Positions 1 through 62,704 of a DNA stretch of 64,000 bases are shown in pieces. This DNA comes from Combretum micranthum (Eukaryota > Streptophyta > Magnoliopsida > Myrtales > Combretaceae). The first letter of the stretch is position 1; every line of letters starts with the position of its first letter. The stretch lies in contig JAMXBD010000967.1 of the NCBI GenBank assembly GCA_024138025.1, positions 372,001 through 436,000 of the forward strand. The letters are read 5' to 3'. The notes beneath the pieces were generated by a model. It was given only the letters and a program-made list of their open reading frames with translations. It had not been told where the DNA came from and did not search any database. The position numbers and the translations under genes are program-made.

Positions 1-1545
1 ACAACAAAATACTTGAGCATACTTAAATATGAGTTATATAGTTATAAAAAGAGAATTTTTCAACTATATAGATAACTAAGTATTTATCAAACAAATTTTG
101 ATTTCTTGAACCAAAGGTGTTTTTACTTGAAAAATCCGTAGTGAATTTTGTCGCCACTGTTTCGGGGCCTATATGGCCTTATTTGATGGAAATAGTTTTA
201 GAAATGGGTAGATCTTTTCGAGTAGGTAGAAATCGGTATATTATATGCGCGATTCCGAGTTAAAATAACCAAGTTATGGCCATTTTAAGTTGGAACATTC
301 CTTTATACGAACTTTAACGTTCTTTTGATATTGTTTTGTCAAATCTCAAGAAAATCATCAAGAAATACTTATTATGGGTATTTTATTTGGTTAGGTGACC
401 CCGAGGAAGGATTCCTTTACCCCGAGGATTATTATGACTAAGTGGAGTGTGTGAACGACTCATCCACCTAGAGAAATAGTCGACATGGCATCGTGAGTTT
501 ATTTCCATTAAAAGCTATACTTGTTGTGCTTGTAAATTAGTTGCATTAGAGTTAGGAAAAGATAAACCGATGTGTATGTAAGATAATTCCTTGAAAGAAT
601 TATTAAGAATATCGAAGCCAGAATTGTTTTAAATGATTGTTTTAGTATAGTATTGATTTGTATGAAATTCCTTGATCGCCTTAAATTTAAAAATAATTAT
701 GCTATGACTTTATAAATAAATGAATTGATGCATACGACAAAGTGAGTCACATTGCATTTTGGGTTATTATCCTTGGGTGAGAAGGATAGTAAACTCATGT
801 CGAAAGCAACACTTGGCAGGAGATCCGAAAGAGATTGCTTGGCGGCTTAATGGAAAATACTTGGCGGAAGATTCGAAAGCAAGGTCAATCAAGTAGATTC
901 AGAATGCTTGGCGATGAGTGCTCGCGAGCATGAAAACTTTTTAACTAAAACTACTTGAATTGAGGTTATGTATCACCAAACCCTGAATGGAGGGCGTAAA
1001 TCCATTCAACATATAGTTCCCGGAACACTATATGCTTGTTTGCCCACGTGCTTGATTGCATTACATTTGTTTGTTTAATCAACTTGTTTGAAATCTTGTT
1101 ACAATAAGTTATTTATGGAAATAGTTCTCACTAAGCCTTTAGCTTATACCCCAATAGATATCTTTTGCAGTTTTCCTACTTATGGTTAAGGCCACGAGGA
1201 CCCTGCAAGCAGGTAATTTCTTGTTGGATACTAGAAATAGAAATAAAGTGTAGTATTAGTATTGTTGAACAAATACTCATGTAATAGATTAGTGATCAAG
1301 GGGATACGTCCCTAAGTTTGTAAGGCCATTAATATGAATGAATAATTATTATGAATCCTCTTTTCTTAAATGTGTTATTTATATCTTCTTAAACTTCATA
1401 AGTCCATGTATGGTCCTCTAAAGTTGTGAAAGTACGCCTTACACTTAATATAAAAGCTTTTGGGAATGGCTAAAGTTGTCATACTTAAGCTTTAATATTG
1501 AGTGTGGCGGACTGTCACGTTTAGGGTACTCTTTGGGGCGTGACA
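1..1545 (+). mobile_element. LTR-1, 3' part of a chromovirus LTR
   Basis: The 5' end lies left of the window. The 3' end reads GGGGCGTGACA at 1535-1545, the terminus shared by all plus-oriented copies here. Landmarks in order are the palindromic core at about 258-302, the acidic exon-like frame at 397-441, a short tandem repeat around 800-900 (CTTGGCGGAAGATTCGAAAGC-like units), and the covarying hairpin pair at 985-1034. It sits inside LTR-2; the likely TSD copy on this side is aatcg (1546-1550), but its partner is outside the window. Confidence 0.8.
985..1034 (+). other. Covarying double stem-loop (exemplar, LTR-1)
   Basis: Stem 1 is GAATGGA/TCCATTC (985-991 with 1001-1007). Stem 2 is CATATAGT/ACTATATG (1010-1017 with 1027-1034). 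Counterparts lie at 4378-4427, 5689-5738, 6820-6869, 8626-8673, 15077-15120, 36914-36961, 40155-40203, 46720 to about 46770, 47389-47438 and 54129-54177. Arms change in compensated ways: GATGGA/TCCATC, CATGGA/TCCATG and ACGGA/TCCGT in stem 1; CATATGAT/ATCATATG in stem 2. Confidence 0.75.
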
Positions 1546-4306: not shown

Positions 4307-4986
4307 CTGTGGGTGAGAACCTAGGGACTAGCAGTAGAAGATCGAGAATCTTCAACCTCGATTTCCTAACCTTCGATACGGAGGGGTAAATCCGTTCTAT
4401 ATATGGTTTCTGGATAACTATATATATTTGCGTAATCACGTGATTGTTGCATTGTATGCATAGCATATGTGTGAAAATCTAAATAAACTTGTTTGAAAAT
4501 ATGGTGCAAATGAAAAGAAATATCTCACTAAGCTAGTTGTAGCTTATACCCTTATAAATTTTGCTGAAACAGGTATACCCGTGGCTTAAATTGAGGATCA
4601 TAATGTTAAGGAAGTCATGGAGGGATGTTAAGCTTCTATGAAAGAAATGGAAGCATAAGATGAAGTAATTTTGTAAGGTTCTTTATATGTAATGGCTTGT
4701 ATGATTAGTGTTATGTTGATTCTAAGATGTATATTTATTTAAAAATAATAGAGGGATATGCCCCCAAGAATTGTAATTTAATATGTATATGTTTTATAAG
4801 TATTCTCTTTGCCTTGTTACTTATTTATTATCAATATAAAATGTGTTACTCTGATGCGTTCCCTTGATTGTGATGTACGCTTTGTACATGATATGGAAGC
4901 CTTTGCGTGACTGAGGTAGTCATTCTTAGGCTTTAGTATTGTGTACGGCGGACTGCCACGTTTAGGGTACCCCTTGGGGCGTGACA
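4307..4986 (+). mobile_element. LTR-2, 3' fragment
   Basis: A copy of the main LTR family that also owns 1546-1559, separated by LTR-Q. It ends GGGGCGTGACA at 4986. The hairpin pair (4378-4427) uses ACGGA/TCCGT arms, a compensated variant. It was inserted into LTR-3: sequence after 4986 resumes at the ttatatgtgaaatt position of the family. The 5' part is outside the window. Confidence 0.75.
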
Positions 4987-8022: not shown

Positions 8023-9854
8023 TCCAAGTAACTTTTTGAAAATAACTTTTCTTCTTTCTATGTTTTCTATATTAATACTATTTTTCCTATTTATTTTTCC
8101 TATACAAATTTTGTCACACCCCATAGGGGTGTCCTAAACGTAACAGTCCGCCACATACTATATAAGACTCTCGAATTTCTATCCAAGCCCTTCGGAAGTC
8201 TTGTATAGATGTAAAGCGTCCCTTTACGACAATAGAATACTTTAATCAATGGAGTTAAGAAGTTTAATGTGGCATTCATTAGCCATAGATAATAAACCAA
8301 AACACATATATAAATTACAAAGTCTAAGGGGCATTCCCCTGCAAAATAATATTAAGTTCATTACAGTCATCCAGAGTCCTTTGGTTTCTAACGGAAGTCT
8401 AAACAAAATCAAAGTAAACTTCTAAGGGAAACCTAGCTCCGGTACCTGAGCTGTAGCCTGCCTTGGCCTAAGCCAAATGAATTCATGCTGCAACAAGTAA
8501 AAACTATAGGGGCGTAAGCTAACTAGCTTAGTGAGTGAAAACTTCCATATCACAATTAAGACAAATCATTCAAGCAAGTGATTATTCAATCAAGTGAAAT
8601 GCATCACACAAGTGGATTTAACAAACATATGACCAGCCGGAAATCATATGTAGATGGACTTACGCCCTCCATCCCGGGTTAGCAAATTAACGAATCCTGC
8701 GGTACAACACCGTTTAAGCTCACGGTCAACTGAACAATATTTCGTTTTATGGATCACGATTAACCAACATATTCGTTTTGTGGATCACGAAAAACCAACA
8801 AATGCTAATGCTCTATCCCCATCGTGATATGAATGAGTTCAAAATTTCATTTAATGCCCAATAGTCAATTAATCCGATTCTTTTAGGTGACCAGACAATC
8901 TTCGCAGATAATCAATTATAGCTCCTCTCTATACAAACAATAAATTATCACCGGCTTCGATATTCTTAATTCCAACTTCACATATCAATAGCAGTCAAAT
9001 ATAATTCCCAAATACCCCATCATGCATATTTATTTTTATCTTTGCCTAAGCAACTAATGCAACTATCATTATACTCACAAGTAATAATTGAAATCGGAAG
9101 TAATACTCACTCGGCCATGGTACGCCGATCTCTTAATAGTAGTAGTCAGGTGGTAGGTGTAAACCCCCGAAGTTTTTCGATCAAATTAAATGCTTAAACC
9201 CTAATCAGAAGTCAACCGGATTTTCAAGTCAACAAAACCCTAGTTTACCATAACCGCTTAACTCCGGCATTACTGTTTTCCTAGCTCTAGAAAACGAAGT
9301 TTGAGTAATTAGTTATTATGGTTCGTAATAGCTATAGGTTACGTAAAAATATCGGTTTTGCAAAATTCGAGTGTCCTTAGAACCCGATCAGACCCAGTTC
9401 TCGAAAAACATATCCCGGAGCTTGGAATAGGAAAAATATTCCGAATATACCATTAGACTCGTAAAAATATAAGATTTCCAAAAATATTAATTTCGTAATT
9501 TTTCGGTAGCTAAAAATATAAGATATCGCATTTATACGCGTATTTTCTTACTACCAGCATTTAATTGTCATGTCTACTTTTACATTATACTATTTACTAC
9601 TATTCTACACTATTCACCTATCTCTACTTTTCCTTACAAGCTATTCTTACTACCATACACCTATTTCTTACACGTTTTCATTTTCAATACAATTTCACAT
9701 CTTTCATTTCTTACTTTTAATTATAAAAAATACAAAAAATTAAATTTTTCTTCCCCATTTCCCCATATGTAGCGCCGGCCCCCTCTCTATCTCTTCCAAT
9801 TTGTTTTATTTTTACTTTATTTAATTAACACAAATTATCTCCCACATATTTTCC

Positions 9855-9862
9855 TATAAATA
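9855..9862 (+). promoter_or_regulatory. TATA box of LTR-C
   Basis: The sequence is TATAAATA in the context CCTATAAATACCCCC, conserved at the same place in LTR-E (20463-20470), LTR-H (36185-36192) and, on the minus strand, LTR-J (42586-42593) and LTR-A (about 19045-19053). LTR-G has a variant, TATATAAA (31902-31909). It is followed by a CT-rich leader, as expected for an LTR pol II promoter. Confidence 0.7.
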
Positions 9863-10127
9863 CCCCCTCATACCTTCACTTCTTTCACACCACTTCTTTA
9901 TTAAAGTTACTATACTCAAATTTCTCTCCAAATCTCTCCAAGAAAGTTCTTCCAAGAAGCTCTCTTTAGTTTATCTCTTTTAGGTAAAAATTCTTCAATA
10001 AATTCCTATGTTCATCTACTTAGTATGAACTTAATGTGTGTTTTCCAAAACCATGAAGGTTAAGAAAGCAACAACAGGTTCATACTTTGTTTTTGTTCAT
10101 AATATCAATTCCTTTATGTTCCTTTAT

Positions 10128-13100
10128 TGTAGATATCTCATTTTGACATTTTTTGTCAAAATAAATACTTATGTTAGTATATACATAATTAGAATAATTG
10201 AATTTTGCAAATTATAAATGTTAAAGCTAGGAATAAAAAAAATAATAAATAAATAAATAATAATAATAATGAATCAATTTAATAGAAATAAATACAATAG
10301 ATGTAATATGGATAATTAATATAGTATAAAGTAATTTCGAAAATTCGTTAAAAAAAAAATTATTTTACTGTTCATCGTCTTCCAGCTTTGGCCGCCCGAT
10401 GGGCCAAGTTTGAGAGCTTTTTTGGCTCGGTTTTCGACCCGTTTTTTACAAACCAAGCACGTTTCTTAAAAGTAGGCACGGAGTAGTTTATATTGGTATA
10501 AAATTTAGTTGTTTTCATCAAGAGAAAGGGTTTCAAATTTGAATTCGAAAATTAAAAAAAAAAACTCGTTTTTAGCTTCCGGAAAAAAGGCAAAATCCGA
10601 GATTTTTGTTGTTTAACGTTCAAAATCTAACGGTAATGATAGCTATTTTTATGTTAATGACAACTAATTAATAGTTGTAATTCGTTTTTTCGGATTAGAA
10701 TAAAAAAACCCTAAATTTAGATCTATAAATAGAGAAGAAAAAAAACAAAAAAAAAAAACACGAAGAGGCAAAGAAAAGAAAAATCAAATAAGCATTTTAT
10801 ATTCAGGAAGTCGAGAGCTTTCTTTTCCCTAATTTGATTGTTGTCGAGAACCACCGAACGGCCGTCATCGGAGTAACCGCGATCCGACGACCCGCGTCAG
10901 CTATCCAAACGAACCACCGGAGTTCTTGTTCCTCTGATCCGTGGCGTACGCATAAATCCCAGAAGTTTTTTTCTCGAACCATTTACGAGATCAATCATCA
11001 TTGGAGAGTGATCTGTGGAAGCTTCAACTATTGAATCAAGACTGTGGAAGCCGCTTCTGATCGTCACTTGTAGAGCCAAATCCAGCCTTCACCTAGTGTC
11101 AAAACTAATCCAATTGGTGAACCTTCGTATCATCCATCTCTAAATCGTCCCAAACACAAGTCAGAACATTTGTTCCCAGGTAAGTTTCATTTGTTTTGTT
11201 CTTTTTTTTTAATAATAATGATAATTAACAATAATATTAAAACTATATTTTAATGTTTAAAATTTCTGATCATATGGAAAATAATAATGATAAATCTGGT
11301 TGTGTGCATATTATGAATATTCGACTCAGAATTACTATGAATTAAAAAAAATGTATTATATAAATGCTGTCGTTAAAAATTCCATTACGATGTATATGTT
11401 TCCTTAATAACATAGTAACCTAAATATATCATATTTGTGAAAAACGTGAATCTCAATTCCATTAAAGCATGTAGTCAATGTGTGGTATGAATTTTGATTT
11501 TTCAGTTCAGGTAATAATTGAACTTGTTGTGAAATTAGTTTTATAATTTTTTTTTTCTTCTTTTTCCTTAAAATTTTGATTTTGAATATATTTGGTTTCG
11601 TCAATGTCAGTGTTAAGTATGGTCTTTGTAAATCAATATGATGTATGTTTGATTTCATGATTCACCTAATGTATAGGATGATATATTATTTTCATCATAA
11701 TATGTTCTACTAGTGTCTTGTTGATTTGAATTCTCGATGGCATCTTGAAATTAGTTTTTTTTTTTATATAGTATATTCAATTGATTTTTTTTTTAATACA
11801 TGATTTTCACCATATGTAGATTATATTTGACATTTTGTTACAATATTATGATACGACATACAGAATTTTCATTGAAATGACTAAAGTTTATAATTCGTAT
11901 GGACAATGTTCTTATTTTTATGATTTAACATTATAATATTCAGGTAATGCATGAAGTTTGAATATAATGATACAAGTTCATTGACATTGATTGTTATATG
12001 TGCATCAAATTGATATGTTCGACATGTGATTTGAATTTCATATTCAAAATTTTGTCACTTGGAAAAATGATTTTTCATAAAATTATCAAAAAGCAATTCA
12101 ATAAATTTAGGATTCACTAAAAACTCATTCTTTTTAATAAAACATAAGTAATAAATGATAGTACTTTCACGAATCACAAATAATTGTTCTATAATTATAT
12201 GTTTGCATTATAAAATCTTTATCATAAATTTCTTTATGCCATAAATTTTGTGAATATGTGTTTTTACCATGATCTATGAATGTATCATTGAGATTTTGTA
12301 ATTTTCACTATGATGTATTCCATTGCTAGTTTGTTGATATAATGTCTTGATTTTTACCATGACTTGTCTTATTGACATCTTGTTAATGTAAATTTTTTAT
12401 TTTTGTCACCATAATATGTTCGATTGATAACTTGCTGAAGTAAGCGTGTTCATTTGAAAATCTTGGTTTGAGTAATAATTGTAGTCGGTAAGTGACATGT
12501 GCATGTATATATATATATATATATTCATAGTAGCATGGATTGGAATTTGTTATGCGAGTTTGTCTAGCTGGAATTAGAATAATTATAATACCTTGTATTG
12601 ATAGAAACCATAATCTTGATATATAGATTGAACTACCATGTATGATTCATTACTCAAAAATTCTTTGTCACCTAGAAAAAATTCGTTTTCATAAAATTGC
12701 TAAAACCTAACTTGATAGATTTAGGGTTCATGTTAAAAGATATGTATATATTTTTTTTATAAAATTAACAAACTTAATGAACTTAAAGCGAAAAGATTTC
12801 GAAAAATTTTAAAATTAACCAACAAACTAATTTTTTTTAAAAAGAACTTCGTGTAGTCTGATCCCGATTAGCGGGTACGTAGGCACCTAAATGGGAGACT
12901 TAAAATATGTAAAAAATTATTTTTGTGAATTTATTTGTTAGTTTAGTTTAGAATACATGAATATTGGTAAAATTTGATAAGATTTGATTAATTTGAATAT
13001 TTCGAGTTTTTTAGATTATATATAATTATTGATGGAATTTGATTAGTATTTTTGTGCTTATTAGACATATGTTTAGTTAATTAGATCCTGATAAATAGTT

Positions 13101-13434
13101 TAGATTTTGAAATTAGGGTTTAAAAGAAAGCAATTTAAATATGAAAATTTAAAGTGGTAACCGTTTAGGTTTTAATAGGTTAACCCCCGAACTCAAGTTA
13201 ATTTCTGGTTCTCGTTTTCAAAAAACGATTTTTTCGCAGATTAGTAGCAAAACTAAAATCAACCTACCCATTGGTTTTGGTTTAATTTTTTTCTCGACTT
13301 TAGTCGAGTGGCGACTCCAAAATATTTTTTAAAATTAAAAATTTCCTTTAATTCTTAGTCGATGATTCGTATTGAATGGGTTAGGGTTTAGTACGAATCG
13401 GATTAAAGGAAATCGAAAAAAACGAGGCTCGACA
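10128..13434 (+). mobile_element. LTR-D, solo LTR of a Tat/Ogre-like Ty3 element (probable)
   Basis: It runs from TGTAGATATCTC to GAGGCTCGACA with an exact TSD tttat (10123-10127 and 13435-13439). A TATA box lies at 10724-10731, followed by a purine-rich leader. The internal GCGGGTACGTAGGCACC stretch (about 12871) and the GTGGCGACTCC stretch near the 3' end (about 13308) resemble what I recall of Tat/Ogre-type LTRs; that family call is from memory. No coding domain is present. It is the youngest insertion in this nest. Confidence 0.6.
12508..12526. repeat. (TA)n microsatellite
   Basis: A short TA run in LTR-D. Confidence 0.85.
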
Positions 13435-13559
13435 TTTATGTTTATAACTATCTAAATATCTATATAGCTATATATATATATATTATTTAGAGCATATAAG
13501 CTCATTGTCTTGCAATTTATTTACCTTCCATGCAATTTATTTAATTACAAGTTGTTCTT

Positions 13560-13645
13560 AAGACTAGTCTTTCTAGTCTTAGACTTATCCTCATCAAGTC
13601 AAAACTTTTTCTTTTCTTTTCGGGACTAGTCTTTTCTTAGTCCCG
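13560..13645 (+). other. Paired GACTAGTC hairpins in LTR-C
   Basis: There are two consecutive stem-loops. The first is AAGACTAG/CTAGTCTT (13560-13580). The second is CGGGACTA/TAGTCCCG (13621-13645). The same pair lies in LTR-H (about 45125-45211), LTR-E (about 20810-20900) and, inverted, in LTR-A (about 18440-18550) and LTR-J (about 42060-42170). They lie downstream of the leader in subfamily A/C/E/H/J. Confidence 0.65.
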
Positions 13646-14576
13646 GGGTACCTTGATGAAGCTAAGGTCCCGATACTTAATTTATTACTTTATATGCTTA
13701 TTCTTTTAAGTTATTATGATCTTTTTATATTTTCATAACTTATGATTCATATTCATGCATGAACATAATGTTTTGTCTCAACAAAAATAAATGAGGAAGT
13801 GTTTTCTTAAACTAAAGATTCTTTCTAAAGAAATAAATGTAGAAAATAGATTTCTTAAAAACTCATAAACATGCTTATGGTTTTTCTTAAAACAAAAGGT
13901 TTTATAAAAACTTATTTTTCAAGTGTTAGAAATTCTTTTAGAGTCATTACAAGAAACAAAATATCATTTTATGAAATTGTTATTACTTTGGAAAGTTGTT
14001 GGAATCCAAGTTTAGAAAATAAAACCACTCTTTAGGAATTTAAAGTAATTACAAGAGATTAAATTTAGAATATTCATCTCAAATAACTTAAGATCTTTTC
14101 AAAAGTAAAATGAATATTCCAACAAATCTCAAGTTCAAAATCTTTTAAACTTTACTTTTTCATAAGTTGAGACAACTTCATTTACTTCATCCATTTGTTA
14201 TGAGTCAATACATATATATATATATATCTTCCAAAAAGTTTATAAAAATGCTTGGAACATTCATCTCTTCAAGTGAGTTTTATTTAAAAAGAGGAACTCA
14301 AGTTTTTACAAACTCGTGGAGAATCTGGTCGCTGCTTTTTCGGGACCCAAACGACTTAGTTTTATGAAAATAAGTTTAGAAATGTGTAGATATTTCTAAG
14401 TAGGTAGAAAATGATATATTATACGTGAAATTCCGAGTTAAAATGAGCAAGTTATGGCCATTTTAAGTTGGAATTTCCTCTTATACGATTTTTACCGCGA
14501 TTTTAAGAAAAGTTTAGAATCTTCAAGAATAGAAGTTTTATGAAAGACTCATTTTGGGTATTTCACCTTGTTAGGT

Positions 14577-14621
14577 GACGAAGGACCCGAGGTCGTCTAT
14601 CCGGAGGACTATTTCGATTAG
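14577..14621 (+). other. Acidic 14-codon exon-like frame (exemplar, LTR-C)
   Basis: After an acceptor-like ttgttag|GT the frame reads DEGPEVVYPEDYFD and then TAG. Equivalent open frames are: LTR-1 397-441 (DPEEGFLYPEDYYD), LTR-A 7415-7459 minus (DSEEGYLYPEDYFD), LTR-B split (DPKHDDTLPPDYYY), LTR-E 21997-22041 (EEGTDISFPKDYFD), LTR-G 35079-35123 (DFESKEFLPQDYYD), LTR-H 46213-46257 (GEGPEITFSEDYFN), LTR-I 37395-37439 minus (DPDIDNSLPPDYLY) and LTR-M 52891-52935 minus (DLDTCEDVPDNYYD). Each is exactly 14 codons plus stop. LTR-J and LTR-N have single-base deletions in it. Confidence 0.55.
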
Positions 14622-17233
14622 ATTTACCGTTATGGAGTGAGTTAATTCTTTTTCTAAGTTACATTTCATTGTTTATGCTTGTAATTAGTGGCACTAGAAA
14701 TTTAGGAAAAGATAAATGAACAATTGTTATGAAATATTTGTTGAATGAAAATTAAGTATATCGAAAGACGATATGTTAAATAAAAGTGTGATTCTTGTAT
14801 TGATATGATGAAATTATGGTTGATCACCTTTAACATGAATTCAACTTATATAGTTAAATGTATAATTGAAAATTATTCATGCATATTATACTTGTGAGTT
14901 ACATTTATTTCACTACTATTCTTCGTGTGGGGAAACAAGGAAGTAGTAGTGGTGGCTGGTAGGAGCCGATAAGTCTACATGGGCCAGTAGGAGCCAAGAA
15001 GTCTACAGGGTGAGCAGGAGCCGGTAAATTTGCAAATATTGATGGTCGTATGGGCCTGTAACCTTCCAACCCTTGCCATGGAGGGCGTTAAATCCATGCT
15101 GTACTTGATTTCCGATTAATCTTGTGTATTTGTTTACTCATGTGATTGGTGCATTACATATGCTTGAATTAAATAACTTGGTTGTTATATGAAAATGTTA
15201 TACAGTTAAGAATTATCTCACTAAGCTAGATCTACTTATACCCTTATAGTTTTCTATTATGGTATGAATATCTATGGTTGGCCCCAAGGAGCCCCGTGTG
15301 CCAAGTACGAGTTTAAGTTACTAGGAGTTTTTGGAAGAAGTTTATGTATTTTTAGTTATGAACATAAACTTCTAGGAAAAAAATCTCTATAGTAGGCTTA
15401 TGTAGTAGTTATGTTTATTTTGTTATTAGTATAGTTGAACAAAGATTTTAAGGCGGGGGAATGCCCCTAAGATGATGTATGAACTTGTTATTAAATAAAG
15501 ATCTTATGTTTATCTATTTAAGTTCATGCTTGCTTTAGCTATCTATTTAAACGTAATACCCTTATGAGTCTCCTACTATCTTGGAAGCACGCATTGCATG
15601 TTATGTCGAAGCTCCTGCGTGACTAAGGTTGTCATTCATTAGCTTTAATATTATATGTGGCGGACTGCCACGTTTAGGGTACCCTTTGGGGTGTGACAGT
15701 AGGGTATCGTCGTGCTTGGGATCACCTACCAAATAAGAATAACCTAATAAGAATTCATCACTTAACTAATTCAAACTATACATCTAGACTTTAAACAAAA
15801 TTGTGATTTTCGCTATTTACGGAAGTTTCAACTTAAAATGGCCATAACTTGGTCATTTTAACTCGGAATTTCCCAAATTTTATATCGATTTCTATCTACT
15901 TCGAAAGATCTATCTATTTCTAATATTATTTTTAAGTTTTGAAAACATTAAGGTCACGGAACAGAGGGATCAGATCTGTTCTGTAACTTTTCCATTTCCG
16001 AAAAATTGTTTTGCATTTGGTAAAATGTGTCTTGTTGATGATTCATGTATAGATGAAATATGAATGAATTCCTAGTATGAATGTCATGTAATGAGTTCAA
16101 TATATGCATGATCTTGATGATTTTTGATAATGAACTTTAAAGAACTCCTAATTATTACAAGACTCCACAATAGTCACTTCTTAAAAATATATTCTTTCAA
16201 ATTTTGCATTTCCTAGGGTTTTAGGATTTTATTCTTAGAATTTACTTGCTATCTAAATAAAAATGAGTCTTCATCATCTATACTATCCAAGACCTTCATT
16301 TATACATAGAAATTCACATTTTTCACCTTGCAAATATGTTTTTAAACAAGCTTTTCACAAAAATCCGAATTTTGGAAAATTTCATTTCTTGCATATTTCT
16401 TATGAGAAAACTTGTTTAATGCATCAAAATGTGAAGCTTTACTATATCTATTGTCTAAGGACTTCATTTAACACATAAAACTTGTAATTTGAGCTCAAAT
16501 ACTAGGTGATTACATATGCATCATCTCAAATTACGAATTTGACAATTTGATCACTAACTCAAAATTTTCCATTTTAATTCCATTACTTGTTTTACACATT
16601 ACTCATACCTAAACTCATTTTAACTTGTGAAAATCATTCCTTAGAGATACCTATTACATATACCTTTCATTTTTCATGAAAAAATATGAGTTTCAAGGGT
16701 TTTTAAAATAGGTTTCAAAAATCATCCGAATTTTCCACTAGATATTTCTAACAAAATCTTTTCTTTTTCAAGTTCCTTGTCCTATATCCATAAAGATCTA
16801 TCATCTAACACATCTATATACATGCAAGGCTAAGCTTTTATGATCATTAATGCATGAAAGCTCAAAATATTCACATGAACATAAATGTCAAGATAGATAT
16901 AAATGTCTAAACACTAGATCTACAACTTGTAGTGCATGAACATGAGTTTAATGACATGAACATAAACTTTCCATGCAAGATCTCTACTTTACATGTATGA
17001 ACAAGATAATATTTCAACAAAATTTCATTAAACACAAGATCTACTTCTCGTGATGGCTTGATATTCTTGTATTAGTGTTTTCCTATTCCTAGCATTTGCT
17101 CATTGGGATTTAAGGTGGAAAACACACAAGAATGGTCTTGCCATTACAAGATAATGTAATAACAAAGCTTGGAATCATCACCTAAATGAGGATTTGGAGA
17201 AGAAAAGAAGAGGAAATAAGCTTGTGAGTGAGT

Positions 17234-53595: not shown

Positions 53596-56500
53596 TATCA
53601 TGCCCCAAAGGGTAGTCTAAAGGTAATAGTCTGCCGCAAGCTATATAAGACTTAGGAATTATCACCACAATCGTCCCATAGTCTTGTATAGATGCAAGGT
53701 GCACCTTTACGATAATAGAATATATGAACCAGTGGAGATAAATAGTTTAAATTGACATATTATAAGCATCAGGATAAAACCATGAGTCCACATAATTAAT
53801 TACAAAAATTTCTAGGGGCATTCCCTCGCGAAATAATATCGAGTTTTATAAAAGTCTTTACTGTCATCCGATAAATAATAGGGTTTCCTATGGAAGTCTA
53901 CACAAAATCGAACATAAACTTCTAATGGAAACTCCTACTTCCGGTACCTACTCGGTGTGATGCCTCGGCCTTAACCAAATATACGGGTACTACAATAAGA
54001 AAAAGCTGTGGGGGTGTAAGCTACACTAGCTTAGTGAGTGACTACTTCCATAAAAACATTATAACAATTCAATCAATCAAGTTAATTAATCAATCGTATG
54101 GAATGCATCAATCACATAAACAAACAATCATATGATCAGCTGGAAATCATATGTGAATGGATTTACGCCCTCCATTCGAGGTTAGCAGATTAACAGATAC
54201 TGTGGTACTATTGTTGAATTAAGAAGACATTTATGGATTACGGATAACCAACTTATGTTGTTTATGGATCACAATCAACCAACTCATTTACGTCGTTTAT
54301 GGATCACGATGAACCAACTTTTAGCCGTTTACGGATCACGGGTAACCAACATATGCCAATGCTCCATCCCCATCATGAAGTGAATGTGTCTATATTAATT
54401 TATCAAACCGAAGAATCATTAATACCAATTTCTTAGGTGATCAACAATTACGTAGACAATCATTCCTATAATACTCTAAACAAGTATGAGTTAGTCACCC
54501 GATTTCGATATTCTTAATACCCTTTCTCAACTCAACAATAACATACATATTTCCCCATAATTCCCATCATGCAATTCCACTTTTATCTTTTGCCTATGAT
54601 CTAGTGCAACTAATTGTTACAATTACAAGCAATAATGAAATTAGGAAGTAATACTCACTCGGCCATGGGTCATCGGTTTTTTAGTAATAGTAATCCAAGG
54701 TAATGAATCATCGGGATCCAAGTCACCTATATGAAAGAAATACCCAAATGAGTATTTCAACTCATAACTAATCCATTTTATTTCATAAAAGTTATTAAGT
54801 TTGTAATTTCTGTCATTGGTGGAAATTTCAACTTAAATTGGCCATAACTTGGTCATTTTAACTCGGAATTTTGCAAATTATATATAGATTTCTATCTACT
54901 TCGAAAGATATATCTAATTATAATATAATATCTAAGTTTTGAAAATTTTAGGTCTTGAAAGGTCCGAACAGATCTGGTCAGTAAGCGAATTTTCATTTTT
55001 CGAGATTGTTTTGTAAAGAATTATGATAATACTACTATCCAAGCCAAATATGCATGCAACAATAACAATCACTATCATGAATGGTATGTTATGAGTTTCC
55101 TATATGCATATTCATGATGAGATTCTATTAAAATATTTTGAGACTTTTATTTTACAAGATATCATGAGTTCTTAATCTAGTAAGTTCAACTTTTGTTTTT
55201 GACCAACCACACTTGTTTTAGAGATTTTCCTTATTAAAACTTACTTGTTCTTGCTAAAATTACTTCTATATCACATCTATTTCTTATGGTCTTCATTTTT
55301 CAACATAAATCCTCATTCTACACATTGTAAACAAGTGTTTATATATTAGCCATTCCTAAATCCAAATTTTTGTAAAAAGATAGTTTTTGAGTGATTTCTT
55401 TGAGAAAAACTTGTTCAATACTTTAAAATTCCAAGCTCCATTATTCCTATCCCCTAAGGGCTTCATTTCTTCAATAAAACTTCCATTTTGAATTTGAAAA
55501 GTAGGTGTTCACATATCCTCTTTTCCTAGTTACGAATTTCATGCAATTATCTTAAGATCAATTTTTTCTATCTTGTAAATATTTCTTGTTTAACAAATTC
55601 CTCTTAGTAGATCTTCCTTTCACTCACAAAAATCATTTCCTATTGTTATCTATTCCATTAGCTCTTCATTTTTCACATAAAAATCATGTTTTAGAGTTGA
55701 AAAGTAGGTTTTCAAAATGTGACTCATTTTCCATCCGAATTTACAAAAGCTTGTTTTTATAAACCAAAGTTGTTCTTGACCTTTTTGGCTCACATTCATA
55801 AATATCCTAACTTCTAGAAGTATTAAAACATTCATTTACATAAGACAAGATATTTATGACCATTTGCTCATCCTACACATAATAAATGCATGAGATCTAC
55901 AATGTCATGTAAGAGAGTAAATGTTTAAGAGCTAGATCTAAGTGTAATGATCATGTTATATGCATGAAATGAGATATACTACTTATGACAATGATGTAGT
56001 AGCAAGTTTCCTACATGAACTCATCACTACATGAGCATATATTATGATTATGAGAAAAACACAAGCTTTAACACAAGATCCACAACTTGTGATGGCTTGA
56101 TATTCATGTTCTAGTAGTTTCATATCCCTAGCATGAAGCTCATGAGGATTTTTGTGAATCTACACATGAATGATCTAGCCATTACATGTCTTGGTGGTAG
56201 TATAGTTTAGATCTATACCTATTTAGGCTTTAGAACAAGAGGAGTTGAAGAAAGAAAATTGTTGTGTGAGAGTGTGTGTGTGTGTTGGGAGACTCACGGT
56301 AAAGGAGTAAAAGAGGGAGAGAATTTGTAAAATTTTGACAAAGTGAAAATGAGGAAAGAGAGTGAAGAATAAAAGAATATTTATGGTAGGTTGAATTAGG
56401 GTTTGTGTTGATTAAAATAAAGAAAGAAAAATAAAACAATTGAGAGAAAAATAGGGAAGGGTGCGCCGGCCATTAGGAGGAAGAGAGGAGAGATTAATGA

Positions 56501-57087
56501 TTTTGTAAAATTTTCAAATTAAAATATGTAATAATATGCATTGGAAAAGTAATTGTAAGGAAAGTGATGTAATAAGGTATGGTTTAGTTGTAAGGATGTA
56601 AAAATAGGTTATGGTTTGTGAGTGTGAGTAGGGTATAGGCTTGTACTTGTAAATAGTAATGAATAGTAGATAAGACAATTAAATTACCTGTTAGTAAAGA
56701 AAATACGATATAAGGGCTATAACTATAATTTTTATAAACTGAAAAATTATAATAAATATATATTTGAATTTCTTATTAAATTCCGGTCTTAATGAGTATT
56801 CCGAAATATTTTTCCAATTCCGAGTCCCGGGAGCCGATTTTTCGAAACGGATCTCGGTTGGGTCGAAACAGATAATTTTTCGAAAACTAAAATTTTTAAG
56901 TTTCGTTATATTCTTTGGAACTATAATCTATATTAACTTACTCTCAAAAGATTTATGGTTTTATTCTTGGTGGAGCTGAACTTAGGGTTTCTAGGTTCTT
57001 GCTAACCCTAGCTATTCCGGTTTAGGGTTTCGGTTTTGATTCTGCTCACGAAGTCAAGCTTGGCTTCAGAGAAAACCGGGACTTACA
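53596..57087 (-). mobile_element. LTR-N, 3' LTR of the chromovirus
   Basis: This 3492-bp LTR runs on the minus strand from TGTAAGTCCCGG to GGGGCATGATA. It directly follows a purine tract (AAGGTGGGTAGGT, 57088-57100) and the end of the pol frame, which proves it is a 3' LTR and ties the solo LTRs of this window to a chromovirus. The hairpin pair is at 54129-54177. The minisatellite slot holds about four GTTTATGGATCACGAT-like units (54215-54345). The acidic frame near 54690-54735 has a 1-base deletion. The palindromic core is at about 54826-54870. Confidence 0.88.
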
Positions 57088-57129: not shown

Positions 57130-57320
57130 TTACATACCTTGGTTCTCAAATAATTCAGGATACTTCCTTTGAATTTCCTCCTCAACTTCCCAAGTTGCTT
57201 TTTCGAAGGCATGATTTTTCCATAACACCTTTAGATACCAGATTTCTCTTTTCTGTAACTTTTGAGTTTTCTTATCCAAAATTTTCATCGAATGTTCTTC
57301 ATAGGTGAGATTTTCTTTTA
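57130..57320 (-). pseudogene. Chromovirus pol C-terminus: chromodomain
   Basis: The frame contains KILDKKTQKLQKREI, then YLKVLWKNHAFEKATWEVEE and YPELF, the classical integrase-linked chromodomain of plant chromoviruses (Tekay/Del type). In that family the module is thought to steer integration towards particular chromatin. A stop (57130-57132) closes pol 42 bp before the LTR. The domain itself reads open, but stops and frame changes separate it from integrase, so no full polyprotein can be made. Confidence 0.82.
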
Positions 57321-57639
57321 AATGAATGGGTTCAACTCCAATACCCTTTCGGGGTCTGGTACCTATTTCCTTAGCACCGATACATGGAACACCTTATGGA
57401 CTCTGATAAATTTGGTAGCAAAGCTAGTCAGTATGCTAAATCTCCGACTCTTTCCAAGATTTCGAAGGGTCCAATATATATCTCGGGCTCAACTTTCCTT
57501 GTGTAAGCGTTCTCTTTATACTCTTGATCGGGTTTATCTTTAGATACACATGGTCGCACACTTTAAATTCAAATTCCCTTCTTTTCAAGTCTGCCAAACT
57601 CTTTTGTCCATCATGGCTTCTTTCATTTTTGTTGAATGA

Positions 57640-58470
57640 TTCTTACCTTATCGACAGCCTCTTGTACTAACTCTGATCCGATAGCAAGCTTTTCCACATC
57701 ATTCCAAAACAGAGGGGACCTACAATGCCGTCCATATGAGGCTTCGTAGGGTGGCATCTTAATGGTTGAGTGATAACTGTTATTGTTAGCAAACTCAATG
57801 AGGGGTATATGGTTTTCCTAGTTCTCTTTGAATTCCAAAACACAATCTCTTAACATGTCTTCCAAGGTTTGGATTGTCCGCTCAGACTGCCTATCCATCT
57901 GAGGGTGGTATGTGGTACTAAAGTGTAACTTTGTACCAAAACTCCTCTGTAGACTTATCTAGAACTTGGACACGAATCTCGGGTCCTTATCTGAAATGAT
58001 TCCTGCTGGTATGCTGTGTAGCCGTATAATTTCTCGAATGTAGATCTCAGCTAACTTGTCTATTGTATGCGTCATATTAATAAGTAAGAAGTGCGTTGAC
58101 TTAGTTAACCGATCCACTATTACCCATACTGCGTCACAACCCAAGGAAGTCCTTGGAAAACCACACACAAAATCCATAGATACCTGATCCCACTTCTATT
58201 CAGGGATGGGTAAAGGATTTAATAATCCTCCTGGTCTTTGGTGTTCTATTTTCACTTATTGGTAAATCAAGCACTTCATTACATAATCTGCTATATCCTT
58301 TTTCATGCCATTCCACCAATAGTGGCTTTTAAATTCTGGTACATCTTGGTACCTCCAGGATGCATAGTGTAATCGGAGTTGTGGGCTTCACTCATTATTT
58401 CTTTTCTTAAATTCCCATCTTCGGGCACACATAATCTACCCTTCATCCTGACCACATCTTCATCATCTAC
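57640..58470 (-). pseudogene. Chromovirus integrase (decayed)
   Basis: Reading down the minus strand: an HHCC-type zinc-binding remnant (EAHNSDYTMHPGGTKMYQ, then YVMKCLIY, where the last cysteine is tyrosine); the catalytic core with MDFVCGFPRT, VDRLTKSTHFL and IISDKDPRF (57959-58177), giving the first two acidic residues of DD35E; then HPQMDRQSERTIQTLEDM (about 57850-57890) with the third. The usual TDGQSER is MDRQSER here. The C-terminal part follows with MPPYEASYGRHCRSPLC (about 57710-57770). Several stops and frame changes make it non-functional. Confidence 0.85.
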
Positions 58471-58479
58471 CGCAAAGTC

Positions 58480-59070
58480 CAGGTATTTTCCTTCTTAAGT
58501 TCCTTTTTAATCCTTTGCATTATTTCATCATACCTTTGAGCTTCTTTGATCCTTTCAATCAAGGTTGGTTCTAATACTAAATTAGCTATTTCAAGCTCCA
58601 CATTTTGGTCTACGAACTCAATTCTCAGCTTTTCAAAATCTCTGATTAGATCTCCTTGACTTGTGATTAAAGCAGTGACTTCTCCATAATTTTTCCAACT
58701 TAGGGCATTTACAACCGCATTCACTTTCCCTGGACAGTAATTTATTCTGAAATCATAGTCCTTTATCAGTTCCAACCATCTTTTTTGCCTCATGTTTAAT
58801 TCCTTCTGTGTGAATAAATACTTAAGACTTTTGTGATTTGTGTATACTTCACACCTTTGTCCATGCAAAAAATGTCTCCAAAGTTTTAGGGCAAAAACGA
58901 TTGTGGCCAATTCCAGATTATGTGTAGGATAGTTCTGCTCATGAGGTCTTAATTGTAGAGAGGCATAGGTAATAACCTTTCCTTCTTGCATTAGTACACA
59001 TCCAAGGCCATTCCTTGAAGCGTCCCTATGCACCATATAACACTTTTCCGGGTCTGCAGAACTAAGATTA
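58480..59070 (-). pseudogene. Chromovirus RNase H (decayed)
   Basis: The frame at 58467-59036 begins [17 protein letters not shown] and continues [44 protein letters not shown] and [14 protein letters not shown]. Family members normally have TDHKSL and ADALS; both aspartates read as asparagine here, so the active site is damaged even where the frame is open. A stop and frame change separate it from reverse transcriptase. Confidence 0.85.
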
Positions 59071-59079
59071 GTACCGATA

Positions 59080-60019
59080 CCAACCGTTGTTTCAACTCTT
59101 GGAAACTCTATTCTCGTTTATCCATCCAAACAAACTTTTCGCTCTTTTGTGTCAACTGAGTCAGAGGCTTAGCTATCTTCGAAAAATCCTTTACAAACTT
59201 GCGATAATAGCCAGCTAATCCTAAGAAACTTCTTACTTCGGTTACTATTTGTGGCTGTTTCCAATCCACTACAACCTTAATCTTTTCTAGGTCAAATGAT
59301 ATCCCTTCTTCTGTTACAACATGCTCAAGAAAAGATATTTTATCCAACCAAAAGTCACACTTAGATAATTTGGCGTACAACTTGTTTTCCCTCAAAGTTT
59401 GTAACGCCATCCAAAGATGTTCCTCATGTTGTTCCTTATTCTTGGAGTATATCAAAATATCATCGATAAAGACTATTACACACTTATCCAGAAGTGACTT
59501 GTAGACCCTGTTCATAAGATCCATAAATGCAGCTGGTGTATTGGTCTGTCCAAATGACATCACTAGAAATTCATAATGTCTATAATGGGTACGAAAAGCG
59601 TTTTGGTACATCCTCAGGCTTTATTCTTAGTTGATGATATCCTGAGCACAAATCAATGCGTGATAACATACACATTCCTTGGAGTTGATCAAACAAATCA
59701 TCAATCCTCGGGAGGGGTATCGATTCTTGACTGTAACCTTGTTTAGCTCACAATAATCGATACATAATCTCATAGATCCGTCTTTCTTCTTTATAAATTG
59801 AACAGGTGTGTTCCATGGCGACACGCTTGGTCTTATGAATTTCTTATCTAAGAGTTCCTGTAATTGAGTCTTTAGCTCCTTTAACTTAGCCAGTGCCATC
59901 CGGTATGGTGCCTTAGATATTAGTTCAGTATTTGGAGCCAAAACAATTTCAAAATCAACTTCTCTTTTCGGGGGTAACCCAGGTAATACTTCTAGAAACA
60001 CATCCAAATACTCATTCAC
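59080..60019 (-). pseudogene. Chromovirus reverse transcriptase (decayed)
   Basis: The N-terminal part (60019 to about 59670) carries [35 protein letters not shown] and [21 protein letters not shown] frame change lies near 59640. The next open part (59611-59108) carries [20 protein letters not shown], the catalytic motif [13 protein letters not shown] (FIDD for the usual YxDD), [12 protein letters not shown] and [16 protein letters not shown]. The order and motifs are typical of Ty3/gypsy reverse transcriptase. Confidence 0.88.
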
Positions 60020-60159
60020 TACTGGTATATCCTTTTCCCCTCAAGCATCCTCCTCATCAACATACCTTCGATAGGCACTACCTCTTCATCTTCCATCATC
60101 AACTCAAAAGAATTTAATCCAAGTTTTCTTGGAACTATGGTTTCTCCAACAAACTCCAC

Positions 60160-60545
60160 TCCTTTTCCCAATTAATCATTGAAGTTTATTATCCTCTTTT
60201 GGCAATCCACTACAGCTTTAACCTTGCTTAACCAGTTCATGCCAAGTATAACTTCATACTTATTCATCTCCAACACTATCAAATCACTCATGGATTGATG
60301 CCTTAGATCTCCAATGGACAATCCCTTATCATTTCTCGAGTTGACACGACACTTCCTATGGGTGTTTTAATTCTCAGACTAGTGATAGTTGTAGCTAGAG
60401 GCAAACCAAGTCGTCTAACCAAACTAGTGGTGATGAATGAGTAGGTTGCTCCAGTGTCAAACAAAACATAAGCCTCAATTTCATTCACCCATATGTGCCC
60501 TGTGTTCAACAAATGTCTATCATTAATCGATCCTAGATTGCTCAC
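60160..60545 (-). pseudogene. Chromovirus aspartic protease (decayed)
   Basis: The frame at 60303-60545 contains AYVLFDTGATYSFITTSL, the DTGA active-site loop of retropepsins. After a stop the homology continues with NKYEVILGMNWLSKVKAVVDC (about 60190-60270), the usual GMDWL region with D changed to N. The protease normally matures gag-pol. Confidence 0.82.
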
Positions 60546-60849
60546 ACAACTTATTTATCCTAAACTTAGATTTTTAAATTTTTACAAGTTTTAAAGTTTT
60601 ACAAGAATTGGCAAATAAGGAAATTTTAACTCTTAAGAGGGTTTCGCGACTAACTTGTGACTAAGCCGACATCATCACTGCTACCGTAGTTCACAGCTAC
60701 CAGTTCTACTTCCTCATCATCATCTTCTCCAATCATCTACTGGTCCTCGAAATTGTAGAGTCTCATCCATGCATAGCTGATGCCGTACGACTTCCACTTC
60801 TACTTCCAAATCTCATAATGCTTGCATTGCCTGGTATTCCAAAAGATCA

Positions 60850-61844
60850 GGCCGCCACACTCCTCCTCTATGAGCATTTAGTGGCCAGGTGCCCTTTTTC
60901 TTTATAGCTAAAGCAGGTCACTGCCATTTTCTTTGGACATGCATAGACTATGTGACCAGATTTGCCACAATAGTAACACTTGTTCCTCAACTGCGGACTC
61001 TGTCTAGGGTAATGGGCCTCTTACACTTCCACCAAGTGATATTAGCCTTTAACTGATTCGGCCTCCCACTAGCATTGTCCTTAAATCCGTGATAGGGCTT
61101 GTATCTTTTTCTCTTAAACCCTGAACTTGAGGCATCGAACGACCTCTTTCCAAACACTCTCTTATCGGGTTCTTGGTATTTTCTCTTCTTGGCTCCTTCA
61201 ATCACCCGAGCCTTTTCTACCAACTCCAGGTAGGTTCTCATTCCAAATTCTTCTAGCTTAATCCTTAGATCTTCATCCAGACCTCCCAAAAATACCTGTT
61301 TCTTCAACTCTTTGCTATCCCTAAAAGATTCAGGTGCATACTGCAACAGATGAGTGAACTCAGTCTCATATTATTCCACGATTCTACCTTTCTACTTGAC
61401 ATGTAGGAAGTCTGCACTGTACTTTACTCTCAAACTGGAGGGAAAATAATTTTCCAAGAATTCCCGGTGAAACAACTCCCATTTGACGGGTAGGGTTAGG
61501 GTTAAGCTTCTTCTTTTAGAGTCCCACCAGACTCTTGCATTATATCTTAACATATAAGTGTCACATTCCAATTGTAAATATGGTGGAGTCTCATAAGCTG
61601 CAAAGGAGGGCTCAATTTGAGCCAGCCAGTCTTCGGCTTCATCGAGTTTACCGAAAGCTCCATCAAAATACTGATTGCTCTTTATAAAACCCGGTAGAAA
61701 GCTTCGGTAAGGTCTCCGATATGGTGGAGGTGGTGGTAAAGGTGTGTTATAAGAATGATCCTCCTGTGGAGCCAGGACCTCGGAAGTCACTTCTCGGTGA
61801 TCTGCAGCTGGTGGTGGTATCAAGGCAAAATCCCTGACATTTTG
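60850..61844 (-). pseudogene. Chromovirus gag, main part with zinc knuckle
   Basis: The open part at 61392-61843 carries PGFIKSNQYFDGAFGKLDEA, AEDWLAQIEPSFAAYE and WELFHREFLENYFP, the capsid-like core of chromovirus gag. Two in-frame stops separate it from YAPESFRDSKELKKQVFLGG and the basic RKRYKPYHG region. A CCHC zinc knuckle CYYCGKSGHIVYAC lies at 60937-60978. A second knuckle, CFSYKEKGHLATKC, has tyrosine where the second cysteine should be, and a stop follows. A SINE-like cluster cuts the coding sequence at 61845. Confidence 0.82.
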
Positions 61845-62704
61845 TGTCACGCCCCGCCCCCACAAGCGACGGCAATGTGATGCCAGGGCAGGCAAACCCA
61901 CCACTGGCCCCCTAGTGGTAATGGCTGACATCCACCCTCAGGTGAGACCCCAACCAACGCATGCCCCACAGGGTACCACGGGCACTATAAATATTGTTAC
62001 CCTTAGGCAGAGTTGAACCCAGTCTGCAGCCTTAGGATTCGAACCCCAGACCTAAGGCTTTTGCCTGCCCCAAAGGCAGCACCTTTCACCAGTTGAGTTT
62101 TATGTCACACCCCACCCCGCAAGCGACGGCGATGTGATGCCAGGGCAGGCAAACCCACCACTGGCCCCCTAGTGGTAATGATCGCCACTACCATTGATCA
62201 TGGTGACCCCAACCAACGCATGCCCCAAAGGGTACCACGGGCACTATAGGTATTGTTACCCTTAGGCAGAGTTGAACCTAGTCTGCAGACTTTAGGATTC
62301 GAACCCCAGACCTAAGGCTTTTGTCTGCCCCAAAGGAAGCACCTTTCACCAGTTGAGCTGTAGATCAATTGGTGAAAGGTGCTGCCTTTGGGGTAGGCAA
62401 AAGCCTTAGGTCTGGGGTTCGAATCCTAGAGTTTGCAGACTGGGTTCAACTCTGCCTAAGGGTAACAATACCTATAGTGCCCGTGGTACCTTGTGGGGCA
62501 TGCGTTGGTTGGGGTCACCATGATGCAATGGTGGTGTCGGCCATTACCATTAGGGGGCCAGCGGTGGTTGTCTGCCCTAGCATCACATCGTCATCGCCTG
62601 CGGGGGGGGGTGTGACAGTGTTGGCCATTACCACTAGGGGGCTAGTGGTGGGTTTGCCTGCCCTGACATCACATCACCGTCGCCTGCGGGGGCGGGGTAT
62701 GACA
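61845..62704. mobile_element. Palindromic cluster of tRNA-derived SINE-like units
   Basis: Unit S1 (61845-62102, minus), S2 (62103 to about 62358, minus), S3 (about 62359-62617, plus) and S4 (62618-62704, plus, 3' part only). Each full unit is about 258 bp, with a pol III A box (TAGATCAATTGG, 62361-62372 in S3) and B box (GGTTCGAATCC at 62416-62426; inverted at 62035-62045 and 62295-62305). Units end GGGGCGTGACA or similar. S2 and S3 form a large inverted repeat about 62358. S1 and S4 give the cluster inverted outer ends of about 85 bp. It is flanked by ttttg (61840-61844) and ctttg (62705-62709). Confidence 0.72.

What the first reader, a model, noticed from the sequence alone, without database searches (positions are those of the whole stretch)
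985..1034. Covarying double stem-loop conserved in almost every LTR copy
Two adjacent hairpins occur at the same place in at least ten LTR copies. Arms differ between copies but stay complementary: GAATGGA/TCCATTC, GATGGA/TCCATC, CATGGA/TCCATG, ACGGA/TCCGT for stem 1; CATATAGT/ACTATATG versus CATATGAT/ATCATATG for stem 2. Paired changes argue that the fold, not the bases, was selected in the active source elements, for example as an RNA packaging, dimerisation or processing signal.
Basis: partly seen in the sequence, partly recalled or inferred. Interest (0 to 1): 0.78.

Follow-up and report, generated by a model that had tools for sequence, protein, structure and literature searches.

The report
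Covarying RNA hairpins in plant LTRs
A very common plant retrotransposon carries a pair of small RNA hairpins near the end of its terminal repeats whose letters change between families while the pairing is kept, which points to a working RNA part of the element.

Summary
The double hairpin at 985-1034 is real. The window holds 13 copies, in LTRs of a chromodomain-type Ty3/gypsy retrotransposon (about 3.5 kb, TG...CA ends, 5-bp target duplications, a decayed gag-pol with 3' LTR at 62-53.6 kb). They lie about 540-620 nt before the LTR 3' end, on the element's sense strand. Stem cells pair in 91.6% of cases over 59 genomic copies. On a tree of flanking sequence, both sides of a pair change on one branch 23 times against 8.7 +- 2.5 expected. 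GU steps outnumber AC steps, chiefly on internal branches, so the sense RNA seems selected while dead copies decay. Against: no single pair is significant in an R-scape-like all-pairs test. The hairpins open a ~190-nt conserved module with a sharp 5' edge and a 3'-splice-site-like end. HP1 may be an H-type pseudoknot (AACCC with loop GGG), unproven. Most likely a cis-acting signal of the element's RNA; packaging or dimerisation was not testable. No Rfam match; nine paper searches listed no description.

The parts
985..1007 (+). HP1: GAATGGA / TCCATTC, loop GGGCGTAAA (992-1000)
   Evidence: covarying stem, recovered by RNAalifold on a structure-blind alignment
1010..1034 (+). HP2: CATATAGT / ACTATATG, loop TCCCGGAAC (1018-1026)
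   Evidence: covarying stem
979..984 (+). conserved AACCC(T) just 5' of HP1; CCC 981-983 could pair with loop GGG 992-994 (possible H-type pseudoknot)
   Evidence: 39 of 49 distinct rows can form at least 3 pairs, covariation not significant (p 0.12)
979..1170 (+). ~190-nt conserved module of the LTR: HP1, HP2, conserved linear block, CTAAGC..GCTTA block, pyrimidine tract and YAG
   Evidence: conservation profile (0.34 before, 0.74 from the first bases)
1132..1146 (+). candidate HP3 TAAGC..GCTTA: sequence-conserved, no covariation
   Evidence: 0 double changes
1161..1170 (+). TCTTTTGCAG: 3'-splice-site-like end of the module
   Evidence: by reading only
1..1545 (+). 3' part of the LTR that holds the hairpin; LTR end GGGGCGTGACA at 1545
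4368..4433 (+). copy of the double hairpin
   Evidence: 61.3 bits
5682..5747 (+). copy of the double hairpin
   Evidence: 68 bits
6811..6876 (-). copy of the double hairpin
   Evidence: 74.2 bits
8617..8681 (-). copy of the double hairpin
   Evidence: 76.4 bits
15068..15135 (+). copy of the double hairpin
   Evidence: 48.7 bits
22926..22991 (+). copy of the double hairpin, degraded
   Evidence: 31.4 bits
36905..36969 (-). copy of the double hairpin
   Evidence: 72.5 bits
40146..40210 (-). copy of the double hairpin
   Evidence: 78.1 bits
46711..46778 (+). copy of the double hairpin
   Evidence: 67 bits
47382..47447 (+). copy of the double hairpin
   Evidence: 82.4 bits
52209..52276 (-). copy of the double hairpin with very different arms
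   Evidence: 54 bits
54120..54184 (-). copy of the double hairpin inside the 3' LTR that follows a decayed gag-pol
   Evidence: 82 bits
39653..43298 (-). complete solo LTR, 3.65 kb, TSD AAAAT
9158..15698 (+). solo LTR, apparently interrupted by a nested insert (about 10128-13434), TSD GTAGG
53596..57087 (-). 3' LTR of a decayed chromovirus, preceded by PPT-like AAGGTGGGTAGG (57100-57089)
57133..61937 (-). decayed gag-pol: zinc knuckle, protease and integrase (read by eye), RT, RNase H, chromodomain; same strand as the hairpin of its 3' LTR
   Evidence: RVT_1, RT_RNaseH, zf-CCHC; Chromo E 4e-5, 23.9 bits against cut-off 25.1; two integrase pieces gave no Pfam match

Best explanation
A cis-acting structured RNA element of a plant Ty3/gypsy chromovirus. 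The sense transcript folds two adjacent hairpins (HP1, possibly closed into an H-type pseudoknot by the conserved AACCC just upstream, and HP2) at the 5' edge of a ~190-nt conserved module about 550 nt before the LTR end and primer binding site. Shown here by computation: the fold, its covariation in aggregate, the strand, its place in the LTR. Inferred: the module lies in the transcribed part (R or long 5' leader), where the folded RNA is read by a protein or by the reverse-transcription or RNA-processing machinery as a mark of the full-length RNA, comparable in role to the tandem R-region hairpins of retroviruses or the Ty1 5' pseudoknot. Which step it serves (RNA selection or packaging, start of or transfer in reverse transcription, or choice between spliced and full-length RNA) is not shown. 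I put about 0.8 on a selected sense-RNA fold, 0.45 on this whole statement and about 0.25 on packaging or dimerisation in particular.
For: Structure-blind alignments recover both hairpins (31 copies; 59 copies). Flank-only tree, 59 copies: 23.1 branches with both sides changed against 8.7 +- 2.5 (0 of 300 in each of 20 reconstructions), 18.4 of them keeping a standard pair; partners slid by 1-3 columns give 0-2 pair-keeping double changes (one reconstruction). Internal branches 17.6 pair-keeping against 8.2 pair-breaking single steps, GU:AC 8.8:2.0; terminal branches 26.1 against 25.5, GU:AC 19:12. Flank searches: of 33 profile hits 31 have the model's hairpins, one (L034) has them by eye and as a weak model match, one is cut off by the locus end; 20 of 20 fetched places (of 39 listed) match the model. 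Sharp rise of conservation at the 5' edge of HP1 (19 copies). Sense orientation by gag-pol with 3' LTR and by the primer site of a relative.
Against: No transcript data: start site, poly(A) site and hence R are unknown, and no TATA-like box is conserved upstream (by reading). In the all-pairs G-test with a tree null no single pair is significant (best E 2.7 on 31 rows; best E 2.1 on 59 rows, 2 of 15 structure pairs at two-set E < 0.05). Single-sequence folding z-scores are modest and similar on both strands (mean -1.91 sense, -1.64 antisense, 39 copies). With the blind alignment the excess of double changes is smaller (18.4 against 9.3 +- 2.6, null maximum 19). One of the 20 fetched flank-found copies, L042, has lost the 5' arm of HP1. 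All copies come from one genome.
Confidence: 0.45

Rival explanations
1. RNA-processing element: the hairpins and the conserved block act on splicing or 3'-end formation of LTR transcripts, setting the balance between spliced mRNA and full-length RNA.
For: The module ends in a pyrimidine tract and YAG in 26 of 31 rows (counted by eye); GTA-type donor-like letters follow about 40-80 nt later in many rows; a TTTTGTGCAG acceptor-like site lies downstream of the PBS in L057; AATAAA-like letters follow HP2 in some families. Some plant Ty3 elements are known to be spliced (passages of PMC3735527).
Against: No transcript evidence; the donor-like site is not in all families; HP3, nearest the YAG, shows no covariation.
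Confidence: 0.25
2. DNA-level element: the inverted repeats work as cruciform or dyad protein-binding sites in the LTR promoter, as proposed for Sirevirus palindromes.
For: Dyad symmetry in LTRs is described as a feature of cis-acting transcriptional activators (passages of PMC2829016).
Against: The letters of both arms change while complementarity is kept, unlike a fixed binding site; the GU-over-AC excess on the sense strand (28:14 events, p 0.044; 32.7:14.0) is not expected for DNA. The excess is moderate.
Confidence: 0.1
3. No selection: template switching at quasi-palindromes during reverse transcription rewrites one arm from the other and so creates paired changes.
For: Would act only in replicating lineages, as the internal-branch pattern does.
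Against: Template switching makes perfect Watson-Crick arms, not the GU states seen (31 GU against 8 AC cells); it does not explain the conserved loop GGGCGTAAA or the conserved place.
Confidence: 0.1
4. Shared ancestry alone: a few old subfamily-specific changes make the arms look as if they covary.
For: All-pairs tests with a tree null leave single pairs non-significant.
Against: Aggregate co-substitution exceeds the flank-tree null in every reconstruction; slid partners give almost no pair-keeping double changes; 5 of the 12 top-ranked of 1953 column pairs are stem pairs.
Confidence: 0.1

Closest known systems
Tandem R-region hairpins of retroviruses (HIV-1 TAR and poly(A) hairpin; recalled, no call)
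   Same: two adjacent small hairpins in the LTR on the sense RNA
   Different: no homology tested or expected; here the R region is not mapped and the LTR is about 3.5 kb long
Yeast Ty1 5' pseudoknot (passages of PMC4974528)
   Same: structured sense-RNA element of an LTR retrotransposon, possibly a pseudoknot
   Different: Ty1's is long-range, pairing the R region with letters downstream of the PBS within the first ~270 nt; the one proposed here is local, some 545 nt before the PBS, and not proven
Sirevirus LTR palindromes (passages of PMC2829016; Bousios 2016 seen only as a reference in PMC5311732; the paper itself is not held)
   Same: inverted repeats in the LTR of abundant plant retrotransposons
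   Different: Copia elements with repeated motifs, most with a CGG-CCG core, upstream of the TATA box; here Ty3/gypsy, one double hairpin per LTR, arms covary
LTR profile models (passages of PMC3601003)
   Same: links residual conservation of long R regions to stem-loops

Membership tests
Ty3/gypsy chromovirus LTR | TG...CA ends and 5-bp target duplication | tested here: met
   TSD AAAAT (39653-43298), TTTAC (L030 1107-4762), GTAGG (9158-15698)
Ty3/gypsy chromovirus LTR | tRNA primer site after the 5' LTR, unrelated flank after the 3' LTR | tested here: met
   for a relative: two places 10.28 kb apart that match the L023 flank; L057 has TGGTATCAGAGCATGG 9 nt after the LTR end, L058 an unrelated flank. 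The hairpin stretches of these two places were asked for but did not complete. iMet assignment recalled. None of the 11 ends has such a site
Ty3/gypsy chromovirus LTR | gag-pol order PR-RT-RH-IN next to the LTR | tested here: met
   for the copy at 62-53.6 kb; protease and integrase read by eye, two IN pieces gave no Pfam hit
Ty3/gypsy chromovirus LTR | chromodomain at the end of pol | tested here: inconclusive
   Chromo E 4e-5, 23.9 bits, just under the 25.1 cut-off
Tekay/Del clade | place in an RT tree | not tested
   name is a lead from memory only
Any Rfam family | match to a covariance model | tested here: not met
   Searches (whole window, gathering; 900-1300, E up to 5): 0 matches
Retroviral TAR/poly(A)-type R hairpins | location in R at the 5' end of the transcript | not testable with these tools
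   no RNA data
H-type pseudoknot | second stem between the upstream strand and the loop, supported by covariation | tested here: inconclusive
   39 of 49 rows can form 3 or more pairs (GU allowed, any register); permutation mean 36.4, p 0.12; L028 ACC/GGT against L012 ACT/AGT is a suggestive compensatory pair; 10 rows cannot pair
Sirevirus palindromic repeats | CGG-CCG core in multiple copies per LTR, Copia element | tested here: not met
   one double hairpin per LTR and no CGG-CCG core in the stems; gag-pol is Ty3-type

The most novel reading that the evidence does not exclude
A previously undescribed, covariation-supported RNA domain that opens with an H-type pseudoknot followed by a second hairpin, at the 5' edge of the R region of plant chromovirus RNA, by which the element tells its full-length RNA from spliced RNA for packaging or reverse transcription; one copy per ~15 kb of the genome.
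Probability: 0.15. Interest if true: 0.78.

Novelty: new member of a known kind. Interest (0 to 1): 0.6.

Why it matters
Plant Ty3/gypsy elements fill large genomes, yet as far as I know their cis-acting RNA signals are little studied, and the length variation of their LTRs kept them out of earlier profile models (passages of PMC3601003). A fold that can be searched for with a covariance model gives a handle on where the functional RNA of these LTRs lies and makes packaging, reverse-transcription and splicing questions testable. It could also mark old solo LTRs whose letters have drifted.

Tried and rejected
Foldback DNA transposon: units in the window often face each other, with TGTAAACCCC/GGGGCGTGACA ends, and I considered long terminal inverted repeats; 5-bp TSDs around single units and a pair of LTR places with PBS and unrelated flank rejected it. 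HP3 as a third covarying hairpin: RNAalifold predicts it, but no pair changes on both sides; kept only as a conserved sequence block. 5' splice donor in the HP1 loop (GTAAAT): several rows have AT, AC or CC at the GT. L001 (IMG/VR pattern match) is a chance match in a phage-like contig. Other plants: no relatives in viral contigs; six plant-like contigs in bacterial assemblies gave no credible hairpin (best E 0.95), but at 3-7 kb they probably do not reach the relevant LTR part, so this is not a negative result. Papers: 9 searches listed no description of this element; most subscription journals are not in that library.

Full report
OBSERVATION. The sequence at 985-1034 is as described. HP1 is GAATGGA (985-991) and TCCATTC (1001-1007) around GGGCGTAAA; HP2 is CATATAGT (1010-1017) and ACTATATG (1027-1034) around TCCCGGAAC. 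BLAST, a pattern search and a covariance model together find 13 copies in the window. On 11 of them 90.9% of stem cells are standard pairs and 9 of 15 pairs have a change on both sides; shuffles give 82.9% and 3.7, and partners slid by 1-3 columns give 21-43% paired.

WHAT IT SITS IN. The copies lie in repeat units with ends TGTAAACCCC...GGGGCGTGACA in the orientation of the hairpin. Three units carry 5-bp duplications: 39653-43298 AAAAT, 9158-15698 GTAGG (apparently with a nested insert), and L030 1107-4762 TTTAC. A pattern for the unit's 3' end found it for 10 of 13 window copies and, stricter, for 11 of 30 copies; the hairpin begins about 540-620 nt before it. None of the 11 ends is followed by a primer site within the 25 nt printed, so those are solo or 3' LTRs. 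A search with the flank of the L023 copy lists two pairs of places 10.28 kb apart on one strand (C308 and C1256). For C308 the downstream place shows the LTR end followed by unrelated DNA (L058), and the upstream place shows the same LTR end, 9 nt, and TGGTATCAGAGCATGG (L057), which I recall as the initiator-tRNA-Met primer site. The hairpin stretches of these two places themselves were requested but not delivered; two others of that subfamily, fetched in part, show HP2 and the 3' arm of HP1 (L059, L060). In the window a decayed gag-pol on the minus strand (zinc knuckle, protease, RT, RNase H, integrase region, chromodomain) is followed by a purine tract and an LTR (57087 to about 53596) that holds the hairpin copy at 54184-54120 on the same strand. 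The host is therefore a Ty3/gypsy element of chromovirus type, and the hairpin strand is its sense strand.

HOW COMMON. In 20 stretches of 10 kb the model finds 17 copies at E < 1e-5. In six more stretches it finds none at E up to 0.001, though L034 has a weak copy. That is about one per 15 kb, or of the order of 10^5 copies, as a rough figure: the stretches were not drawn at random, and the first twenty came from contigs known to hold a copy.

IS THE FOLD SELECTED? To reduce circularity, copies were also sought by flank. A profile of the downstream flank (built from the copies already found, so mildly circular) gives 33 hits: 31 carry the model's hairpins, one is cut off by the locus end, and one (L034) carries both hairpins with new arms, AGAGA/TCTC(C) and GTTTGGAT/ATCCAAAT, by eye and as a weak model match. 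A DNA search with the flank of the 47385 copy (its first 5 nt lie in the HP2 arm) listed 39 other places; 20 were fetched and 20 of 20 match the model, though L042 has lost the 5' arm of HP1. Structure-blind MAFFT alignments folded with RNAalifold return HP1 and HP2 on 31 copies and on 59, with lower energy for the sense strand (-30.8 against -26.7; -27.5 against -23.1).

For the tree test, the 61 matches less two were used; dropped were a weak match, L030:7943, and L006:970, a rearranged copy with a different flank. The tree came from 155 nt of flank. Parsimony gives 23.1 branches on which both sides of a pair change, against 8.7 +- 2.5 when changes of one side are dealt out anew by branch weight (0 of 300 in each of 20 reconstructions). 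18.4 of these keep a standard pair; slid partners give 0-2 (one reconstruction). An earlier run on 39 rows, L006:970 with its foreign flank still included, gave 25.6 against 8.8 +- 2.4. With the blind alignment the excess falls to 18.4 against 9.3 +- 2.6, null maximum 19 of 2000 draws. The stem cells pair in 91.6% there; in the model-fitted alignment of 33 distinct rows, 93.5%.

The contrast between branches is what a retrotransposon under selection should show. Internal branches have 17.6 pair-keeping and 8.2 pair-breaking single changes; terminal branches, presumably mostly dead copies, have 26.1 and 25.5. Watson-Crick pairs turn to GU 27.8 times and to AC 14.0 times (rounded 28:14, p 0.044), internal 8.8:2.0, terminal 19:12; blind alignment 32.7:14.0, internal 11.7:3.0; cells 31 against 8 in 33 distinct rows. 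AC on this strand is GU on the other, so the excess points to the sense RNA. 48 of 59 copies keep at least 6 of 7 HP1 pairs and 7 of 8 HP2 pairs; part of the shortfall is the model's register in the L023 subfamily, which pairs well in another register. There are 12 fully paired arm variants of HP1 and 8 of HP2.

RESULTS AGAINST. An R-scape-like all-pairs G-test with a tree null finds no significant single pair: best E 2.7 on 31 rows and 2.1 on 59 rows. In one search the top pair and 5 of the top 12 of 1953 are stem pairs, the mean percentile of stem pairs is 94.6, and 2 of 15 pass a two-set threshold. Single-sequence folding scores are modest and hardly differ by strand. By my reading, the minimum-energy fold of 9 of 39 copies lacks HP1, in 8 of the 9 because upstream C's pair with loop G's.

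THE MODULE. Among 19 diverse copies mean pairwise identity is about 0.3 upstream (0.34 in the last 20 nt), jumps to 0.74 at the first bases (AACCC and HP1), stays at 0.55-0.75 to about +119, dips to 0.20 at 120-139, is 0.76 at 160-179 and returns to background after about +200. The downstream part is conserved as sequence, unlike the stems, which are conserved as pairing. It ends in a pyrimidine tract and YAG in 26 of 31 rows (counted by eye), with GTA donor-like letters about 40-80 nt on in many rows but not in all families; L057 has an acceptor-like TTTTGTGCAG after the primer site. These splice readings are by eye.

POSSIBLE PSEUDOKNOT. The order CCC, 1 nt, 7-nt arm, GGG, CGTAAA, 7-nt arm has the layout of an H-type pseudoknot (recalled geometry). 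39 of 49 distinct rows can form at least three such pairs, some only with GU or in another register; permuting upstream strands among rows gives 36.4, p 0.12. The sibling pair L028 (ACC/GGT) and L012 (ACT/AGT) is compensatory; ten rows cannot pair. I treat it as open.

MECHANISM. A sense-RNA fold kept in active lineages, at the edge of a conserved module some 545 nt before the primer site (hairpin from L023, LTR end and primer site from L057 of the same subfamily), is best read as a cis-acting signal of the element RNA. Ty1 has a 5' pseudoknot needed for efficient reverse transcription, for which a role in packaging could not be demonstrated (passages of PMC4974528); Ty3 RNA was probed and has candidate pseudoknots in GAG and POL (passages of PMC11381356); barley BARE separates RNA pools and splices (passages of PMC3735527). 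Splicing or 3'-end control is the main rival. The HP2 loop varies (CCGG, TCGG, CCAG, CTGG, CCGA), which makes a palindromic kissing dimer unlikely as a general rule.

NOVELTY. No Rfam family matches. Papers found describe Sirevirus palindromes (PMC2829016, passages) and state that length variation of plant Metaviridae LTRs prevented profile models (PMC3601003, passages); none of nine searches listed this element. It is a new member of a known kind, the structured cis-acting RNA of LTR retroelements.

Noticed in passing
window 1-64000: Much of the window is built of mutually similar LTR pieces, nested in each other; the three units with duplications on both sides are solo LTRs.
   Followed up: partly
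window 2530-2890: A cluster of GC-rich imperfect repeats of GCCGCCGGC-type motifs in an otherwise 32% GC window.
   Followed up: no
window 61840-62617: Three mutually similar ~255-bp pieces in both orientations beginning TGTCACRCCCC next to the decayed gag; ARAGORN calls a tRNA-Pro(GGG) at 62354-62436, overlapping them, probably spurious.
   Followed up: no
L057 1-401: TTTTATTTTGTGCAG acceptor-like site downstream of the primer binding site; with the GTAAG-like site in the LTR (L023 about 9517) it would make a leader intron that removes the PBS.
   Followed up: no
window 119-399 and relatives: A second block conserved between LTR families (74-78% identity) lies some 590-870 nt upstream of the hairpin.
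   Followed up: no
L061-L066: Plant-like Ty3 sequences in contigs filed as bacterial genomes (e.g. Mycobacterium, Streptomyces), apparently contamination.
   Followed up: no
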